Of a DNA stretch of 64,000 nucleotides, positions 3,928 to 38,659 are shown in pieces; positions within the stretch are counted from its first letter, which is position 1; every line of letters starts with the position of its first letter. The notes beneath the pieces are model-generated. The model saw only the letters and a list, made by a program, of their open reading frames with translations, did not search any database and was not told where the DNA came from. Source of the stretch: an uncultured Bacteroidota bacterium (GTDB lineage: Bacteria > Bacteroidota > Bacteroidia > Flavobacteriales > Flavobacteriaceae); assembly GCA_902620455.1 (NCBI GenBank), contig CACNIG010000005.1, forward strand, positions 1 to 64,000, read 5' to 3'. The position numbers and the translations under genes were made by a program.

Positions 3928-4694
3928 AAATCCTTCATTCAAATCTAATTGGAGACTCAGACAGACATCTATTCATAATTCATGGATTTTTAGGTATGGG
4001 AGATAATTGGAAATCTCACGCAAAAAAAATTTCTGAGAATAATTATACTGTTCATCTAATTGATCTAAGAAATCATGGAAGAAGTTTTTGGGATAATAAA
4101 TTCTCATTTGAAATTATGGTTGATGATATTCAAAACTATGCTCTTTTCCATAAAATCAAAAAATTTAGTTTACTCGGCCACTCGATGGGAGGAAATGTAA
4201 GTATGCTTTTTGCTCAAGAACTTCCTGATTTACTAGAAAAAATAATAATAGTAGATATTATACCGAAAAAATACAAGCCATATCATAATAATGTAATGGA
4301 TAGTCTAAAATCAATAGATTTTAAGATAAAAAGATCTAGAAAAGAAGTAGATGATCATATGTCTAATTATATTGAAGATGAGAGAATCAGACAATTTTTG
4401 TTGAAAAATTTATATTGGATTGATAAAGATAGCCTGGGGTTAAAAATTAATATTGATGTTTTGTATGAGTTTAAAGATAAGCTATCACTTGAGCTTCAAG
4501 ATAATTTAAATTATCAAAAACCAACAATGTTTTTATATGGTGACTCCTCTCCTTATGTAGAAAACTCTGATTTACCTTTAATTAAATCACATTTTTCTAA
4601 TGTTGAAATTATTAAAGTACCTCAAGCTGGTCACTGGGTCCATGCAGATAATCCTTCTTTTTTTCTGGATAAAGTAATTAATTTTTTAAATTGA
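3924..4694 (+). CDS. Alpha/beta-hydrolase fold esterase (YbfF-like)
   Basis: A 256-residue single-domain alpha/beta hydrolase with no signal peptide, so presumably cytoplasmic. The oxyanion-hole HGFLGMGDNW lies at residues 20-29, the nucleophile elbow is GHSMGG with Ser87, and the catalytic His is in AGHWVHADNP near the C-terminus. It resembles the YbfF group of short acyl-ester hydrolases, which commonly follows pdxJ in Flavobacteriia. The natural substrate cannot be read from the sequence. It overlaps pdxJ by four bases, so the two are probably co-translated. Confidence 0.85.
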   Translation: MKILHSNLIGDSDRHLFIIHGFLGMGDNWKSHAKKISENNYTVHLIDLRNHGRSFWDNKFSFEIMVDDIQNYALFHKIKKFSLLGHSMGGNVSMLFAQELPDLLEKIIIVDIIPKKYKPYHNNVMDSLKSIDFKIKRSRKEVDDHMSNYIEDERIRQFLLKNLYWIDKDSLGLKINIDVLYEFKDKLSLELQDNLNYQKPTMFLYGDSSPYVENSDLPLIKSHFSNVEIIKVPQAGHWVHADNPSFFLDKVINFLN

Positions 4695-32700: not shown

Positions 32701-32786
32701 GCTCGAGTGGTGGAATTGGTAGACACGTTGGACTTAAAATCCAATGAACAGTAATGTTCGTGCGGGTTCAAGTCCCGCCTCGAGTA
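32701..32786 (+). tRNA. tRNA-Leu (anticodon TAA)
   Basis: The acceptor GCTCGAG pairs with CTCGAGT (terminal G-T wobble) with discriminator A. The anticodon stem TTGGA/TCCAA carries loop CTTAAAA, giving TAA. A long variable-arm hairpin (GAACA-GTAA-TGTTC) and T arm GCGGG-TTCAAGT-CCCGC are present. Five bases after tRNA-Gly, so co-transcribed. The 3' part of this gene is the sequence repeated at 38541, the probable right end of a genomic island. Confidence 0.96.
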
Positions 32787-32841
32787 CTTAGAAAATCGTA
32801 ATAGGCTATTTAAAAGTTTGTTACGGTTTTTTTTATTACCC
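32765..32841 (+). repeat. Direct repeat A (attL-like): tRNA-Leu 3' end plus terminator
   Basis: From the T arm of tRNA-Leu(UAA) through its terminator to TTATTACCC, this segment recurs in the same orientation at 38541-38615. By eye roughly four-fifths of positions agree: the first 26 bases differ at five, followed by ATCGTAA, AGTTTGTT and the T run with TTATTACCC in both. The repeat begins within the tRNA, not before it, as for tRNA-targeted integration. Confidence 0.75.
32794..32834 (+). terminator. Terminator after tRNA-Gly/tRNA-Leu
   Basis: Arms AATCGTAA and TTACGGTT (one wobble) around a 19-base loop, followed by a run of T. It ends the tRNA transcript and isolates it from the island genes. 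Confidence 0.7.
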
Positions 32842-32893
32842 ATTTGGTAACATATTGAAAACAAAACAGAGAATATTTTGTTAAATTGTAGGA

Positions 32894-33166
32894 ATGGGAG
32901 ACAGCGAAAAAAAAGAATTGAGAAATAAAGGGGAAGAGTTTCTTAAGAAATTAAGAGCTGCACCCTATAACAATGATAAAGTAGGTCAATCTTTTATTAA
33001 AAAAACATCAAGCAAACCAAAGACAGTAAAAGATACATCTAACTTGAAGCCAGGTGGTAAGTTCTACGAACTATTTAAAGATGTTCCTTTTAATAATGCT
33101 TTAGCTGGAAAATCTTTTATTAGAAAAGTTTCAAAAAAAAATGAACAAGACAAACAAACAGATTAA
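32894..33166 (+). CDS. Small protein with duplicated 25-residue motif, first gene of the island
   Basis: Not recognised. A 90-residue, Lys-rich protein with no signal or membrane segment. It contains two copies of one motif, residues 13-37 and 54-78, exactly 41 residues apart: G-x-x-F, then Pro-Tyr/Phe-Asn-Asn, a Gly three residues after a short spacer, and Ser-Phe-Ile-Lys/Arg-Lys. The linker is Lys/Ser/Thr-rich. A good ribosome-binding site (TAGGA) precedes the ATG. Its last 26 bases overlap the first methyltransferase gene, so it is translationally coupled to the module. It might be a DNA-binding accessory or regulator, but it has no visible helix-turn-helix; that is speculation. Confidence 0.75.
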   Translation: MGDSEKKELRNKGEEFLKKLRAAPYNNDKVGQSFIKKTSSKPKTVKDTSNLKPGGKFYELFKDVPFNNALAGKSFIRKVSKKNEQDKQTD

Positions 33167-33791
33167 ATCTAAAGAAAGAGTTTCTCAGCATGGGGAAGTT
33201 TATACTTCAGAAAGAGAAGTAAACAACATGTTAGACCTTGTAAAAAATGAAACTGAAAGATTGGATTCTAGATTTTTAGAACCAGCTTGTGGAGATGGCA
33301 ACTTTTTGATAAACATTCTAGAAAGAAAAATGAATATCCTTGTATCTAGGTACAAAAAACAACAGCACGAATTTGAAAAGTATTCGATTGTTGTAATATC
33401 ATCAATATATGGAATTGATATTTTGAAAGACAACATTGAGGAGACCAAAAAAAGACTATATGATTATTATTTTAAAGTCTATTCTAAGACTTTTAAAAAT
33501 TCTCAAAACAATGAACTTTTAAAAAACATACAATATATACTGGATAAGAACATGATTCTTGGTGATGCACTTTCTTTAAAAAAAGTTGATTTAGATGAGC
33601 CTGTAACTTTTTCTGAATGGAGTTTAGTAAATAATTCAATTAAAAGAAGAGATTTTACTTTTGAAAACCTTCTTCAAAACTCACCATTGGAGGGAGAGAA
33701 TCTTTTTTCTGATTTAGGAGACGATGTATTTATCCCTACACCTGTAAAAGAATATCCATTAGTTCACTATTCAAAAATATCTGAGTTATGA
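33141..33791 (+). CDS. N6-adenine DNA methyltransferase-like protein, SAM-binding half
   Basis: A 216-residue protein with the start of an adenine-methyltransferase fold. KERVSQHGEVYTSEREVNNM leads into motif I, FLEPACGDGNFL (residues 45-56), which binds S-adenosylmethionine. It continues with IYGIDILKDNIEETKKRL (acidic motif II) and MILGDAL (motif III). There is no NPPY catalytic motif IV anywhere in the chain, and the protein is far shorter than a complete enzyme. The start overlaps the small repeat protein by 26 bases and the end overlaps the next methyltransferase gene by four. It is probably one component of a two-part methyltransferase; that pairing is inference. Confidence 0.82.
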   Translation: MNKTNKQIKSKERVSQHGEVYTSEREVNNMLDLVKNETERLDSRFLEPACGDGNFLINILERKMNILVSRYKKQQHEFEKYSIVVISSIYGIDILKDNIEETKKRLYDYYFKVYSKTFKNSQNNELLKNIQYILDKNMILGDALSLKKVDLDEPVTFSEWSLVNNSIKRRDFTFENLLQNSPLEGENLFSDLGDDVFIPTPVKEYPLVHYSKISEL

Positions 33792-35278
33792 TAAAAAAAG
33801 TTCATAATCCCGATGTTTTAACATGTATTGCTAATTTAAGTAGTGATGAGGTGTTTACACCTCCATCTGTTGTAAATCAAATGTTAGATTCACTACCTAA
33901 GGAATTATGGAGTAATGAAAAAACTACTTTTCTTGACCCTGTTTCTAAATCAGGGGTTTTCCTTCGAGAAATCACCAAAAGATTGATTGATGGATTGGAA
34001 AGTAAGATTCCAAACCTTGAAAACAGAATAGAACATATTCTTCACTATCAAGTATTTGGAATAGGAATCACAGAACTTACTTCGCTTATCTCAAGAAGAA
34101 GCTTGTACTGTTCAAAATATGCTAATGGAAAATATTCTATTGTTCAATTTGATGATGAACAAGGAAACCTAAAGTATTTTAAGGCTGAACATGTCTGGGA
34201 AGGTGGGGTTTGTAGATACTGTGGAGTAAGTAAAGAAATTTATGACAGAGGGGATGAATTAGAGAATTACGCTTATTCATTCATTCATTCTGATAACCCT
34301 TTAAAATTATTTAATATGAAATTTGATGTAATCGTTGGTAATCCACCTTATCAAATGAGTGATGGAGGAGGAGGAGGAAGTGCTACTCCTCTATACCATA
34401 AGTTTATTGACACAGCTAAAAAATTAAATCCCAGGTTTTTAACTATGATTATCCCTTCAAGATGGTTTTCAGGAGGTAGAGGTTTAGATTCTTTTCGAGA
34501 AGAAATGTTAAAGGATAGAAGAATTTCTAAACTAGTAGATTTCCCACTTTCATCGGATTGTTTTCCGGGGGTTGAAATCAAAGGTGGGGTATGTTACTTT
34601 CTATGGGAAAAGGATTACAACGATAAATGTAATGTAGTAACCTTTAGAAATGGGGAATCTGACTCATATCTAAGATATTTAAATCAATTTGGAGATAACC
34701 TATTCATAAGGTTTAACAACTCCATTTCAATACTAGAAAAAGTTTTAAAGTTAAAAGAACCATCTTTTTCAAAGGTTGTAAGTAATCAAAAACCATTTGG
34801 TTTAAGAACATTTGAAAGGGGTTCAACGGTTCCATCCACTGGAAAAATAGAATTATTTACTAACAAAGGAGTTCAGTATGTATCAAAAGAAAAAGTAACT
34901 AAAAACCCTCATTGGATAAATGAGTTTAAAATCTTTATCACAATGGCGTATGGTGCTGGTGAGGATTTTCCTCACCAAATAATTAATAAACCTTTACTTG
35001 GAGGAAAGGATTCGTGTTGTACTGAAACCTATTTAGTTATTGGACCCTTTTCTTCTTTGGAAAGAACAAATAATGTAATTAGTTACATCAAAACGAAGTT
35101 TTTTAGATTTTGTGTTCTACAAATAAAAAACACTCAACATGCATCAAAATCAGTATATCGGTTTGTCCCTGAACAAAATTTTGATGAAGAATGGACAGAT
35201 GAAAAATTGTACAAAAAGTATGATTTAAATAAAGAAGAGATTGAATTTATAGAGAGTATGATAAGACCAATGGAATAA
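33788..35278 (+). CDS. Eco57I-like N6-adenine DNA methyltransferase with NPPY motif
   Basis: A 496-residue methyltransferase-like protein. The motif I position reads FLDPVSKSGVFL (residues 48-59), with Lys where a Gly is usual. It is followed by VFGIGITELTSLISRRSLYCSK (motif II region), a CRYCG cysteine pair (residues 142-146) and the catalytic motif IV, VIVGNPPYQMSDGGGGG (NPPY at about 185). The segment FLTMIIPSRWFSGGRGLD and a C-terminal target-recognition-like domain complete it. The fold matches the Eco57I-type family of adenine methylases found in restriction-modification systems. It overlaps the preceding half-methyltransferase by four bases and ends five bases before the helicase gene. 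Confidence 0.85.
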   Translation: MIKKVHNPDVLTCIANLSSDEVFTPPSVVNQMLDSLPKELWSNEKTTFLDPVSKSGVFLREITKRLIDGLESKIPNLENRIEHILHYQVFGIGITELTSLISRRSLYCSKYANGKYSIVQFDDEQGNLKYFKAEHVWEGGVCRYCGVSKEIYDRGDELENYAYSFIHSDNPLKLFNMKFDVIVGNPPYQMSDGGGGGSATPLYHKFIDTAKKLNPRFLTMIIPSRWFSGGRGLDSFREEMLKDRRISKLVDFPLSSDCFPGVEIKGGVCYFLWEKDYNDKCNVVTFRNGESDSYLRYLNQFGDNLFIRFNNSISILEKVLKLKEPSFSKVVSNQKPFGLRTFERGSTVPSTGKIELFTNKGVQYVSKEKVTKNPHWINEFKIFITMAYGAGEDFPHQIINKPLLGGKDSCCTETYLVIGPFSSLERTNNVISYIKTKFFRFCVLQIKNTQHASKSVYRFVPEQNFDEEWTDEKLYKKYDLNKEEIEFIESMIRPME

Positions 35279-35283
35279 AAATT

Positions 35284-37776
35284 ATGAGTAAAGAATTCTT
35301 CCCACCAAAACCAGAAGTAAATCCAACTATATATGGATATACTGAACTTTCAGCTGAATATGACGGTTTGATAAAGGTTGGATATACTGAGAGAACTACT
35401 TCTGAAAGAATGAAGGAACACTATCCAACAAAAGGACCTGATAGTTTAAAAAAATATAAAGTCCTTTTAGATGAATCCGCAATGAGAAACGATGGTACTC
35501 ACTTTAAAGACTATGATGTTCACAAAGTACTAAAAGAAAGAGGGTTTGAGAATGTTGGTGGTGAATGGTTTAGGGTCAGTGTTGATGAATTAAAATCTAT
35601 AATATTATCCCTTAAGGAAGGAATAGCTCTTGAGCTTTCCAGAACAAATAATTTCAAACCACGCCCTGAACAGGAAGAGGCAATCGACAGGACTTATAAT
35701 TACTTCAAACACTTCAAATCACAGGAAGGTAAACCACCTCATTTTTTATGGAATTGTAAAATGAGATTTGGAAAAACTTTCACCACATATAAACTTGCTC
35801 AAAAAATGGATTGGAGCAAGGTTTTAATATTAACTTTTAAGCCTGCAGTAGAAAATTCTTGGAGAGAGGATTTGAATACTCACGTTGATTTTGAGGGGTG
35901 GCAATTCATATCAAGAGGTGGAAAAAGTTATGATGAGATTGATAAATCAAAACCGTTCGTATGCTTTGCATCTTTTCAAGACTTTCTAGGCAAAAATCAG
36001 TTGGGGGGAATTAAATTAAAAAACCAGTGGGCTCATAAAGTTGATTGGGATTGTATTGTTTTAGATGAATATCATTACGGTTCATGGAGAGATACAGCTA
36101 AGGAATTATATGAAGCTGAGGATTTAAAAGATTTGAAAGAAGAGAGGTTGGATGAAATGGAGAATTGGGATGAGGATATTGTTCCACTTAAAACAAATGG
36201 TTTCTTGTACTTAAGTGGTACTCCATTTAGAGCAATAGAATCGGGTGAGTTTATAGAAGAGCAAATTTTTAATTGGACTTATTCAGATGAACAAGAAGCC
36301 AAAGAAAAATGGCAAGATGATGATAATCCATATGCATCTTTACCTAGGATGGTTATGATGACATACCAACTTCCTGACTCCATAACACAGTTCACAGATA
36401 GAGGTGAATTTGATGAATTTGATTTGAATATCTTTTTCTCTGCAGAGGGCGAGTATGAAGAATCAAAGTTCAAATATGAAAATGAAGTACAAAAATGGTT
36501 AAACTTAATTAGAGGAGCAGACTTTAATAGGCTTTATGATAGCTTAAAAATAGGTGCTAATAAAGCTTTTCTTCCGTTCTCACATACTGCATTGCTAAAT
36601 AACTTAAACCATACATTCTGGTTTTTACCATCTGTTTCTTCATGTTATGCTATGAAAAACTTGTTAGAACAACCTCAAAATGTGTTCTTTCATGAATTTG
36701 ATATTCTTGTAATTGCAGGAAAAAAAGTTGGTGTAGGGGTCAAATCACTAGAACCTGTAAGAAAAAGCATGCAGAATCCGCTAAAGACAAAATCAATTAC
36801 TTTGTCTTGTGGAAAGTTAACAACTGGAGTTACAGTAAAACCATGGAGTGGTTTATTCATGTTGAGAAATACTAGCTCTCCTGAAACTTATTTTCAAACT
36901 GCTTTTAGGGTGCAATCTCCATGGACAATTTCGAGTTCTGATAAAGACTCTCCCGATAAAAAAGAAATTGTAAAAGGAGAGTGTTATGTGTTCGACTTTG
37001 CACCTAATAGAGCTTTAAAATTAATTACAGACTATAGTTGTAGACTAGATGTTCGTGAAAATAATCCTGAACAAAAAGTACACGAGTTTATAAAATTCCT
37101 ACCAGTTTTATGCTTTGATGGCAGCTCAATGAAAGTTTTAAACTCTCAGGATGTTCTTGATATAGGAATGGTTGGAACCTCAGGAACTCAACTTGCTAAA
37201 AAATTCGAGAGTGCACGTCTAGTTCATGTAGATGACATGACTCTAAAAAGGCTTATGCAAAATCAAAAGGCAATGGATATTCTCATGAAAATTGAGGGAT
37301 TTAGAAGTTTAAATACAGATTTAGAAAAAATAATTAATAAATCAGAAAAAATTAAAAAATTAAAAAAGGAACCTTCAGATGATGATAATAAGAAAAAAAA
37401 GAGAGAAATATCTCAAGAAGAGAGAGAGCAAAGAAGCTTAAGAAAACAAATACAAGAGAAGCTTCAAAAATTTATTACCAGAATACCAGTATTTATGTAT
37501 CTAACTGATTATCGTGAAAGAACATTAGATGATGTTATTACTCAGCTTGAACCAGCTTTATTTAAAAAGGTAACAAGTCTATCAGTTAGTGATTTTGAAT
37601 TACTTCGAGAAATAGGATTATTTAATAGTAGTGAGCTCAATAGTTCTGTATTTTCATTTAAAAGATATGAGGACTCTTCTCTGTCCTACACAGGTGTATG
37701 GAAACATAAAAATGAGGACATTGGTCTTTTTAATACTGTAATTAGTAGTGAAGAGTTTAAAGGAGAAACTGATTAA
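35284..37776 (+). CDS. SF2 helicase with N-terminal GIY-YIG-like region (restriction subunit candidate)
   Basis: An 830-residue protein with two parts. Residues 16-115 resemble the GIY-YIG/T5orf172 nuclease fold: IYGYTEL, then LIKVGYTERTTSERMKEH with the Arg, and GGEWFRVS with a candidate catalytic Glu. The rest is a superfamily 2 helicase/translocase: RPEQEEAI, Walker A KMRFGKTFTT (Lys164), ILTFKPAVENSW, Walker B variant VLDEYHYG (residues 259-266), LSGTPFRAI, and motifs V/VI LTTGVTVKPWSGLFML and QTAFRVQSPW. The C-terminal third is Lys/Glu-rich with a coiled segment (about 680-725). No PD-(D/E)XK nuclease was found, so the GIY-YIG-like region is the probable cutter. Position after two methyltransferases supports a restriction role; activity is inference. 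Confidence 0.82.
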   Translation: MSKEFFPPKPEVNPTIYGYTELSAEYDGLIKVGYTERTTSERMKEHYPTKGPDSLKKYKVLLDESAMRNDGTHFKDYDVHKVLKERGFENVGGEWFRVSVDELKSIILSLKEGIALELSRTNNFKPRPEQEEAIDRTYNYFKHFKSQEGKPPHFLWNCKMRFGKTFTTYKLAQKMDWSKVLILTFKPAVENSWREDLNTHVDFEGWQFISRGGKSYDEIDKSKPFVCFASFQDFLGKNQLGGIKLKNQWAHKVDWDCIVLDEYHYGSWRDTAKELYEAEDLKDLKEERLDEMENWDEDIVPLKTNGFLYLSGTPFRAIESGEFIEEQIFNWTYSDEQEAKEKWQDDDNPYASLPRMVMMTYQLPDSITQFTDRGEFDEFDLNIFFSAEGEYEESKFKYENEVQKWLNLIRGADFNRLYDSLKIGANKAFLPFSHTALLNNLNHTFWFLPSVSSCYAMKNLLEQPQNVFFHEFDILVIAGKKVGVGVKSLEPVRKSMQNPLKTKSITLSCGKLTTGVTVKPWSGLFMLRNTSSPETYFQTAFRVQSPWTISSSDKDSPDKKEIVKGECYVFDFAPNRALKLITDYSCRLDVRENNPEQKVHEFIKFLPVLCFDGSSMKVLNSQDVLDIGMVGTSGTQLAKKFESARLVHVDDMTLKRLMQNQKAMDILMKIEGFRSLNTDLEKIINKSEKIKKLKKEPSDDDNKKKKREISQEEREQRSLRKQIQEKLQKFITRIPVFMYLTDYRERTLDDVITQLEPALFKKVTSLSVSDFELLREIGLFNSSELNSSVFSFKRYEDSSLSYTGVWKHKNEDIGLFNTVISSEEFKGETD

Positions 37777-37794
37777 TAGGCTGAAGTTATAGAG

Positions 37795-38151
37795 ATGAAA
37801 GTGGTTCAATATCAAAATTTTGGAAAATCAATAGAATCAATTCCTAATTCAAAAGGCAACATAGATATGCAGATGTTCTTTTCAGTTTATGAGCTTGATA
37901 ATGGAAAAACAATTTGCTTAGAAACAATTAAGTATTTTAATGAAGAAAAAAGTGAGTTTGAATGGGGAGAGTTTTCAGATTGTGTTAAACATAATTGTAT
38001 TTATCTAGAACACTTCAAGTTTGGAGATGAATTTCATGAATGGTTTGATAAAACACCAAAATGGACTCCTGAAACAAAATGGCCAAATAGCGATGAAGAA
38101 GCTTTAGTAATAAATTTTTATGAGAACAAAATCAAAGTCAGTGAAAATTAA
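37795..38151 (+). CDS. Small protein of unknown function in the island
   Basis: Not recognised. A 118-residue soluble, acidic protein rich in Phe, Trp and Glu (for example FEWGEFSDCV, EFHEWFDKTPKW, ETKWPNSDEE), without signal peptide or membrane segment. It starts 18 bases after the helicase gene and its 3' end overlaps the next small gene by 32 bases, so it belongs to the same operon. An immunity, inhibitor or specificity role is possible but nothing in the sequence shows it. Confidence 0.6.
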   Translation: MKVVQYQNFGKSIESIPNSKGNIDMQMFFSVYELDNGKTICLETIKYFNEEKSEFEWGEFSDCVKHNCIYLEHFKFGDEFHEWFDKTPKWTPETKWPNSDEEALVINFYENKIKVSEN

Positions 38152-38455
38152 TGAAAAAGAATTTATAAAGAAGTTTAAGTCCTTTTCTAAACATCAAACA
38201 TGGACAAAAGACAAACATGATAAGAAAGAAGAGCTTTTTTCTTTTATAAGTGAATTTGAAAACATACAATTCCTGATTAATTATCACAATAATCCTTTTG
38301 GATTTTCTCAAAAATCTTGGGAGCTTAAAAAATATAAAGTTCCCCACAATAAATTAGGTCATTTGAAGAAATACAGAGACATGAAAGTTTTGTTATTGAA
38401 CATTGGTAAAAAAAACATGTTTAAATTAGAAATAATAGCCCTTCCTATTGAGTAA
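38120..38455 (+). CDS. Small basic protein of unknown function, last gene of the island
   Basis: Not recognised. A 111-residue, strongly basic protein (many Lys, with a KKFKSFSKHQTWTKDKHDKK stretch near the N-terminus), predicted cytoplasmic. It overlaps the preceding acidic protein gene by 32 bases. The opposite charge of the two neighbours would suit a complex, but that is speculation. It ends 86 bases before the second tRNA-Leu-like repeat. Confidence 0.55.
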   Translation: MRTKSKSVKINEKEFIKKFKSFSKHQTWTKDKHDKKEELFSFISEFENIQFLINYHNNPFGFSQKSWELKKYKVPHNKLGHLKKYRDMKVLLLNIGKKNMFKLEIIALPIE

Positions 38456-38540: not shown

Positions 38541-38615
38541 GATTCGAGTCCCACCTCAAATACTTAAAGAAATCGTAAAAGACTATATTAAGTTTGTTGT
38601 GATTTTTTTATTACC
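38541..38615 (+). repeat. Direct repeat B (attR-like): partial tRNA-Leu 3' end plus terminator
   Basis: Starting GATTCGAGTCCCACCTC, this is a diverged copy of the tRNA-Leu(UAA) T arm, acceptor end and downstream terminator at 32765-32841. The rest of a tRNA is absent upstream, where instead there is an AT-rich stretch with the palindrome ATATAC-A-GTATAT (38507-38519). It cannot encode a functional tRNA. Confidence 0.75.
38571..38610 (+). terminator. Second copy of the tRNA-Leu terminator
   Basis: Arms AATCGTAA and TTGTGATT pair fully if two G-T wobbles are allowed, followed by a T run. Changes in the right arm relative to the first copy keep the pairing, so it may still end transcription of the island operon. 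Confidence 0.6.
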
Positions 38616-38659
38616 CCCTAAATCAATTTTATAACTTGTAACAATGAAAAAACCCTTAT

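What the first reader, a model, noticed from the sequence alone, without database searches (positions are those of the whole stretch)
32894..38455. Six-gene restriction-like operon with two partial adenine methyltransferases and a GIY-YIG helicase
The six genes overlap or nearly touch, so they form one unit. The order is small repeat protein, short SAM-binding protein, NPPY methyltransferase, SF2 helicase with GIY-YIG-like N-terminus, and two small unknown proteins. Adenine methylation plus a translocase and a nuclease-like domain points to defence against foreign DNA. The mix does not fit the classical type I (no HsdS), type II or type III (no Mod/Res pair with PD-(D/E)XK) layouts. I recognise the methyltransferase and helicase family types but not the complete six-gene set as a named system.
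Basis: partly seen in the sequence, partly recalled or inferred. Interest (0 to 1): 0.75.

Follow-up and report, generated by a model that had tools for sequence, protein, structure and literature searches.

The report
Split DrdVI-type restriction system on island
A small bacterial genome carries a three-gene DNA-restriction system of an already known but barely studied kind, together with three unrelated small genes, on a short insertion at a tRNA gene; its methylating enzyme appears to be divided into one chain that holds the methyl donor and another that holds the catalytic site.

Summary
The core (M1 216 aa, M2 496 aa, R 830 aa) matches, gene for gene and in order, the DrdVI system of Deinococcus plasmid pDrdVI (M1 40%, M2 49%, R 48% identity). 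DrdVI is published as M1-2.DrdVI, m6A, GCAGCC, "IIG" (PMC6430315); MaeIV (GCACY) is put in the same "split methylase/RM" family (PMC10113651). R relatives are widespread (at least 566 stretches in species genomes). Genes 1, 5 and 6 have no relative in the core loci held: cargo. The set lies between diverged 75-bp repeats at a tRNA-Leu gene, and the site is empty in five congeners. The part worth following is the methyltransferase: M1 keeps the SAM motifs but has no NPPY (0 of 105); M2 has NPPY (111 of 111) but a Lys in motif I (111 of 111) and no motif II acid (0 of 111). As cloned M1+M2 of relatives methylate DNA, either the active site is shared between chains or M2 binds SAM unusually.

The parts
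32701..32787 (+). tRNA-Leu (taa), insertion site of the island
   Evidence: ARAGORN; same tRNA-Gly/tRNA-Leu pair at the five empty sites of congeners
32767..32841 (+). left direct repeat (attL-like): last 21 nt of tRNA-Leu plus 54 nt downstream
   Evidence: window flanks overlap by 68-76 bp on five empty sites; local alignment with the right copy scores 73, maximum of 300 shuffles 32; alignment
32894..33166 (+). 90-aa ORF with two similar stretches (PYNNDKVGQSFIKK / PFNNALAGKSFIRK); cargo, function unknown
   Evidence: coding score 0.486; no relative in the core loci, in 198 other family genomes or in viral contigs
33141..33791 (+). M1: half-size SAM-binding methyltransferase subunit (motifs X, I, II, III; no NPPY; no TRD)
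   Evidence: AlphaFold2 pLDDT 87.8 with strands b1-b3 plus a hairpin; aligns to CamA residues 10-154
33273..33308 (+). M1 SAM motif I, residues 45-56 (FLEPACGDGNFL)
   Evidence: Gly51 and Gly53 in 105 of 105
33788..35278 (+). M2: Eco57I/CamA-like N6-adenine methyltransferase subunit with target-recognition domain
   Evidence: Pfam Eco57I E 3.6e-35; AlphaFold2 pLDDT 87.3, pTM 0.85; best structural match CamA, Z 22.2
33929..33967 (+). M2 degenerate motif I, residues 48-60 (FLDPVSKSGVFLR), Lys54 in place of the first Gly
   Evidence: Lys 111 of 111
34109..34222 (+). M2 insertion between motif II and motif IV with Cys108, His135, Cys142, Cys145 (possible zinc site)
   Evidence: Cys108 107 of 111, the other three 111 of 111
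34340..34351 (+). M2 catalytic motif IV, NPPY
   Evidence: 111 of 111
34628..35125 (+). M2 target-recognition region (about residues 281-446)
   Evidence: least conserved part; only weakly correlated in history with M1, the M2 N-domain and R (r 0.20-0.36 for the M2 part after residue 280)
35284..37776 (+). R: GIY-YIG nuclease plus SF2 translocase subunit
   Evidence: residues tallied
35329..35604 (+). GIY-YIG domain of R, residues 16-107 (Arg42, Glu94)
   Evidence: T5orf172 E 1.8e-9; Arg42 and Glu94 130 of 130
35635..37263 (+). SF2 motor of R, about residues 118-660 (Walker A RFGKT, DEYH, SGTP, QTAFRVQ)
   Evidence: ResIII E 4.7e-8; Walker A GKT, DEYH and SGTP 130 of 130
37795..38151 (+). 118-aa ORF, cargo; small family of hypothetical proteins
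   Evidence: weak relatives in 3 of 198 other genomes of the window's family, none near a DrdVI-type core in the 9-18 kb fetched around them
38120..38455 (+). 111-aa ORF, cargo or spurious
   Evidence: no relative in 198 other family genomes, plasmids or viral contigs; coding score ambiguous
38543..38616 (+). right direct repeat (attR-like), diverged copy of 32767-32841

Best explanation
A DrdVI-type split restriction-modification system carried on a 5.7-kb island inserted at a tRNA-Leu gene. M1 and M2 together form the m6A methyltransferase: M2 reads an asymmetric short site with its exchangeable recognition domain and presents the flipped adenine at NPPY; M1 adds an intact SAM-binding half (whether the SAM on M1 is the one used is left open here, see the section on the most novel reading and the third rival). 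R carries a GIY-YIG nuclease on an SF2 motor; it joins M1-M2 at an unmodified site, uses ATP to move or slide along DNA and cuts. Known DrdVI-type sites (GCAGCC, GCACY) have no fixed adenine on the opposite strand, so one daughter site is left bare after replication and cutting most likely needs communication between two sites, as in type III and type ISP. Genes 1, 5 and 6 are passengers. Shown: anatomy, homology, gene order, conservation, island borders. Inferred: subunit assembly, methylation, translocation, cleavage, the two-site rule, and defence in this organism.
For: Same three genes in the same order as DrdVI, and in 94 of 99 loci (gathered by similarity to R) with at least 3 kb held upstream of R. 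M1-2.DrdVI was cloned and expressed in E. coli and matched to m6A at GCAGCC (PMC6430315, whole text); the cloned M1-M2.MaeIV gives m6A at GCACY (PMC10113651, passages); DrdVI R is described as 'a fused translocase and REase', with a GIY-YIG relative (PMC4996451, passage). GIY-YIG Arg42 and Glu94 and the motor's Walker A GKT, DEYH and SGTP are in 130 of 130. M1, the M2 N-domain and R share history (r 0.77-0.88 in 98 loci, permutation maximum 0.13); the M2 C-part only weakly (r 0.20-0.36, still above its permutation maximum of 0.10). M2 folds like CamA, BrxX, DrdV and LlaGI. Direct repeats, and empty sites in 5 of 12 congeners that hold the neighbour gene.
Against: No activity was measured for this locus and its recognition site is unknown. 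Identity to DrdVI is 40-49%. The papers and passages I saw show methylation only; I saw no cleavage or phage test of a DrdVI-type system. The right repeat is diverged (an old insertion) and the island has no integrase.
Confidence: 0.85

Rival explanations
1. The six genes act together as a new defence system in which genes 1, 5 and 6 are working subunits or regulators.
For: Tight overlaps put all six in one unit; all six lie inside the same island borders; genes 1 and 5 look coding.
Against: No relative of the three in the core loci held when tested (tblastn against 144 loci; phmmer). The relatives of gene 5 found in 3 of 198 other family genomes are not near a core in the 9-18 kb fetched. Other core loci carry different extra genes between M2 and R (10 of 47 such ORFs scanned: DUF1016/YhcG, RhuM, BRO-N, AAA, SLFN, HARE-HTH, three without a hit), as expected of swapped cargo.
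Confidence: 0.08
2. A decaying or methylation-only remnant that no longer restricts.
For: Small 1.24-Mb genome; diverged right repeat; Bibersteinia has broken pieces of such a system (PMC4996451 passage); the nearest relative L022 has all three M2 copies broken.
Against: All three core genes are full length and the residues that are invariant in the family are present in the window; codon usage is gene-like.
Confidence: 0.1
3. M2 alone is the active methyltransferase with unusual SAM binding, and M1 is a structural or allosteric partner.
For: M2 has a predicted complete methyltransferase fold and keeps Asp50 (110 of 111) and Gly56 (111 of 111); the first Gly of motif I is not absolute, as M.TaqI has AxAxG (PMC8187626 passage). 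In 5 of 8 distant loci M1's own motif I is changed to CGEAPY.
Against: The motif II acid that holds the SAM ribose in CamA is absent in 111 of 111 M2 proteins, Lys54 is invariant, and M1 keeps its own motif I glycines, motif II acid and motif III Asp/Asn in 105 of 105, which would be hard to explain if M1 bound no SAM.
Confidence: 0.35

Closest known systems
DrdVI (M1.DrdVI, M2.DrdVI, DrdVI REase), Deinococcus wulumuqiensis 479 plasmid pDrdVI
   Same: Same three genes, order and similar sizes; M1 40%, M2 49%, R 48% identity
   Different: Specificity of the window's M2 unknown; three extra small genes; tRNA-Leu island in a genome contig, not a plasmid
MaeIV, Methanococcus aeolicus
   Same: Placed by its authors in the DrdVI-like split methylase/RM family (passages)
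   Different: Archaeal, GCACY; sequence not compared here
R-M2 fused relatives (Enterococcus and Pediococcus plasmid proteins; PADLOC model PDLC03626)
   Same: Pediococcus L018 and Enterococcus L178: GIY-YIG/SF2 part and Eco57I methyltransferase in one protein, with a separate M1-like gene upstream. PDLC03626 (1359 positions) matches R's motor at 150-800 and M2 at 863-1359
   Different: R and M2 joined; M1 motif I altered to CGEAPY in L018 (intact in L178). The GIY-YIG part of PDLC03626 was not matched, so not shown
Type ISP (LlaGI, LlaBIII)
   Same: Motor plus m6A methyltransferase with one TRD; M2 model matches LlaGI, Z 19.2
   Different: ISP is one polypeptide with an Mrr-like nuclease (recalled); here three chains with GIY-YIG
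OspHL35III type (PMC4752239 S4 Fig legend)
   Same: Separate methyltransferase/TRD, translocase and GIY-YIG parts (passage)
   Different: Translocase and GIY-YIG on separate chains and one MmeI-like methyltransferase, not a split one

Membership tests
DrdVI-type split R-M | Separate short M1 with SAM motif I, upstream of M2 | tested here: met
DrdVI-type split R-M | M2 with NPPY and a C-terminal recognition domain | tested here: met
DrdVI-type split R-M | R = GIY-YIG nuclease fused to an SF2 translocase | tested here: met
DrdVI-type split R-M | M1+M2 make m6A at an asymmetric short site | not testable with these tools
   Reported for DrdVI and MaeIV; needs long-read methylome or cloning
DrdVI-type split R-M | ATP-dependent restriction by R | not testable with these tools
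   Needs biochemistry
Type I R-M | HsdS specificity subunit | tested here: not met
   No HsdS family listed for any of the six proteins
Type III R-M | Mod/Res pair, Res with PD-(D/E)XK | tested here: not met
   The nuclease domain found is GIY-YIG and the methyltransferase is two chains
Type ISP | Single polypeptide | tested here: not met
   Three separate ORFs
Classical type IIG (MmeI-like) | Endonuclease and methyltransferase in one chain | tested here: not met
   New England Biolabs nevertheless files DrdVI as IIG
BREX | PglX with PglZ and other BREX genes | tested here: not met
   Only weak PglX hits, no other BREX model, among the six proteins

The most novel reading that the evidence does not exclude
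The DrdVI-type methyltransferase has a two-chain composite active site, with the methyl donor bound on M1 and the target adenine held by NPPY on M2. M1 is the SAM-binding half of a CamA-like enzyme that stands in for M2's own disabled half, whose invariant Lys54 and lost motif II acid block canonical SAM binding. This would be a reciprocal-loss heterodimer, unlike METTL3/METTL14-type pairs, where one chain keeps both pockets (recalled).
Probability: 0.42. Interest if true: 0.7.

Novelty: new member of a known kind. Interest (0 to 1): 0.42.

Why it matters
The window locus is one more member of a restriction family whose R subunit has relatives in at least 566 stretches of species genomes, the best 80 in MAGs and isolates of many bacterial phyla and three MAGs titled archaeal. 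In the open papers I could search I saw it only in genome announcements and short passages. The invariant division of SAM-binding and catalytic motifs between two chains makes a sharp question testable: can donor and acceptor pockets of an adenine methyltransferase lie on different proteins? It also bears on annotation, since M1 is often called hypothetical protein or N-6 DNA methylase, and on building new specificities by swapping only the M2 recognition domain.

Tried and rejected
Six-gene system: rejected, see rivals. Natural M1-M2 fusion to fold as one chain: none seen; M1 hits (E up to 1e-12) in 29 of 394 other genomes of the window's phylum had open frames of 77-283 aa, apart from one weak hit in a 510-aa frame, L212, not followed. 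Pair alignment (A5) failed: MAFFT stacked M2 rows on M1 in every mode and subset tried, so no complex was modelled. Models came without coordinates, so no pocket distances were measured. Recognition site: not predicted; the window TRD is at most 54% identical to any other in the set (L100), median 33%. Genes 1, 5, 6: no match in plasmids (genes 5, 6), phages (gene 5) or viral contigs (genes 1, 6); gene 1 was not searched in plasmids or phages. Viral-contig search with the single R sequence found no relative; with the alignment it found 43. R as a 9-row profile matched only NAP1-related proteins in the PDB (E 0.002-0.006, residues 683-773), probably spurious. Passages of two reviews (PMC12602166, PMC12707154) held nothing on this type.

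Against my reading or limiting it: in 5 of the 8 distant loci printed (L018, L008, L181, L180, L144; L008 and L181 are alike) M1 motif I is CGEAPY, not CGxGN, so the intact M1 site is not universal; the Lys is kept in all 8 (by eye; L143 is also one of the 111 rows). Loci were gathered by similarity to R, some viral contigs are near-duplicates, and no weighting was applied, so 105/111/130 are not independent samples. In one search rows with partial genes and the fused loci L007, L008 and L018 were left out. The two models used 46 rows each, picked by hand from the loci. M1's structural match is tied between MmeI and CamA.
Full report
OBSERVATION. The six ORFs exist at the stated coordinates on the + strand. 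Domains: gene 2 weak MmeI_Mtase/MTase_II, gene 3 Eco57I methylase, gene 4 T5orf172 (GIY-YIG) plus ResIII, genes 1, 5 and 6 nothing above cut-off in Pfam and no hit in PADLOC, NCBIfam or PHROGs. Codon-usage scores are gene-like for genes 1-5 and ambiguous for gene 6.

IDENTITY OF THE CORE. tblastn of R finds 79 plasmid records, 13 of them over at least 80% of the query. In seven plasmid neighbourhoods read, the order is a short gene annotated as methylase, DNA methyltransferase, 'subunit M' or hypothetical, then 'Eco57I methylase', then 'GIY-YIG' or 'DEAD/DEAH helicase', and likewise in a gut phage. Corynebacterium pCRULAC2 has R without M1 or M2, and in Pseudosulfitobacter M2 is cut by the record start. 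One of the seven is pDrdVI of Deinococcus wulumuqiensis 479, whose paper, read whole, lists M1-2.DrdVI, GCAGCC, 6mA, IIG, cloned and expressed in E. coli (PMC6430315). [quoted passage not shown] Identity of the window to DrdVI: M1 40%, M2 49%, R 48%.

BREADTH. Viral contigs gave 43. Of 136 loci with R, three (L018, L143, L144) were set aside as divergent; of the other 133, 99 hold at least 3 kb upstream and 94 of these 99 have M1 and M2; the five without both are L009, L029, L037, L048 and L136. Among 122 loci with separate M2 and R, 88 have a gap of 150 bp or less (L144 counted although its order differs); among 108 with M1 and M2, 97 do. Of 47 ORFs found in the longer M2-R gaps, 10 were scanned: DUF1016/YhcG twice, RhuM, BRO-N, AAA, SLFN, HARE-HTH, three without a hit. 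M1 occurs in 29 of 394 other genomes of the window's phylum. R occurs in 3 of 99 other near relatives and in none of the 24 other genus members, many of them incomplete; only one of the three is a full-length R (59%) with M1 and M2 beside it.

CARGO. tblastn of genes 1, 5 and 6 against the 144 loci then held found only the window's own locus, plus one chance hit at E 0.22; phmmer against ORFs of at least 40 aa in these loci, own locus removed, found nothing at E 1. Loci fetched later were not tested this way, except L174-L177 and L160. Gene 5 has weak relatives (24-38% identity) in 3 of 198 other family genomes, none next to a DrdVI core in the 9-18 kb fetched; genes 1 and 6 have none in 198.

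ISLAND. Of 12 other genus genomes holding the right-hand neighbour gene, 5 (G010, G013, G014, G015, G023) have an uninterrupted tRNA-Gly/tRNA-Leu to monooxygenase junction. In all five, the window segment ending at 32833-32842 and the one starting at 38543 overlap on the empty site by 68 to 76 bp, i.e. the insertion is flanked by direct repeats 32767-32841 and 38543-38616 (alignment score 73, maximum of 300 shuffles 32). All six genes and no integrase lie between. In G017 the same place holds other ORFs. The right repeat is diverged, so the insertion is probably not recent.

SPLIT METHYLTRANSFERASE. Alignments of M1 (105 rows), M2 (111) and R (130), window included, show a strict division. M1: Glu47, Gly51 and Gly53 in 105 of 105, motif II Asp (78) or Glu (27) at 93, motif III Asp (88) or Asn (17) at 142, and no [DNS]PP[YFW] in any of 105. 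M2: NPPY in 111 of 111, but Lys54 in 111 of 111 where PglX/BrxX chains have Gly, and Ala/Gly/Ser/Pro in 111 of 111 where they have the motif II Asp (weak profile alignments, whole-sequence E 0.04-0.24). M1's motif I aligns Gly on Gly with an HsdM, MmeI and M.BseCI. M2 also has an insertion with Cys108 (107 of 111), His135, Cys142 and Cys145 (111 of 111 each). In CamA, SAH is held by Asp60 (motif I), Asp114 (motif II, ribose) and Asp149 (motif III) (PMC8187626 passages). M1 and M2 N-termini are related (hhalign probability 97.3, E 2.4e-11, with EPACGDG over DPVSKSG and GIDI over GIGI). AlphaFold2: M2 pLDDT 87.3, pTM 0.85, nearest CamA (Z 22.2, 405 residues, rmsd 5.5). M1 pLDDT 87.8, pTM 0.83, strands b1-b3 and a hairpin (156-173) whose first strand might stand for b4; it aligns best to MmeI (Z 12.4, 139 residues, rmsd 2.9, chain range 162-524) and to CamA residues 10-154 (Z 12.4, 126 residues, rmsd 2.9), in CamA just short of NPPY (Asn165-Tyr168). 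Foldseek alone gave only E 7e-3 for M1. So M1 looks like the SAM half and M2 like a whole enzyme with a disabled SAM half. In eight distant loci printed the Lys is kept in all 8, but M1 motif I is CGEAPY in 5, which limits the generality.

MECHANISM. Shown: domains, invariance, gene order, co-inheritance of M1, M2 N-domain and R (r 0.77-0.88) against a much looser M2 C-part (r 0.20-0.36, still above its permutation maximum of 0.10) in 98 loci. Among all pairs of the 111 M2 rows, 13 pairs have recognition regions more alike than their N-domains (by over 0.05, N-domain under 0.75) and 5 pairs the reverse (N-domain at 0.8 or more, recognition region under 0.35). Inferred: M1-M2 assembly, m6A, ATP-driven movement and GIY-YIG cutting. 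GCAGCC and GCACY have a fixed adenine on one strand only, so a two-site rule as in type III/ISP is likely (established knowledge of those types, recalled).

NOVELTY. The core is a new member of a known, thinly described kind. My searches touching a published account of the family or of the reciprocal motif loss showed none of the latter in the listings and passages I saw; they cover open PubMed Central papers only and not REBASE, so this is not proof of novelty.

Noticed in passing
L022 1320-9496 (Flavobacteriaceae bacterium bin25 MAG): One M1 and one R flank three tandem M2 copies with alike N-halves and different recognition parts; each copy is broken at a homopolymer (G9 at 2534, G9 at 4334, C12 at 6758, the only G/C runs of 7 or more in 16.5 kb). 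It looks like a phase-variable specificity array; 1 of 113 loci with an M2 N-domain hit.
   Followed up: partly
L022 3500-3763: Between M2 copies 1 and 2 lies a short ORF that reads as an R start joined to an M1 end (R part by blast; M1 part by eye), as a tandem duplication would leave.
   Followed up: no
window 34364-34378: GGA x5 in M2 just after NPPY, at the place where two of the L022 copies carry G9; a change of whole units would not shift the frame.
   Followed up: partly
L160 6936-10825: In congener G017 the same tRNA-Leu site holds two ORFs of 282 and 1006 aa instead of the R-M unit, so the site is variable.
   Followed up: partly
L176 7438-16494: A gene-5 relative sits near several genes whose starts look like DNA methyltransferases (by eye), possibly a defence island, in another genome of the family.
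   Followed up: no
L015 8684-10191 and L020 5536-7043: Two mycobacterial plasmids carry TIR-domain and HIT-domain genes right behind the DrdVI-type core, on the opposite strand.
   Followed up: no
L212: Weak M1-profile match inside a 510-aa open frame (G291), possibly another methyltransferase type.
   Followed up: no
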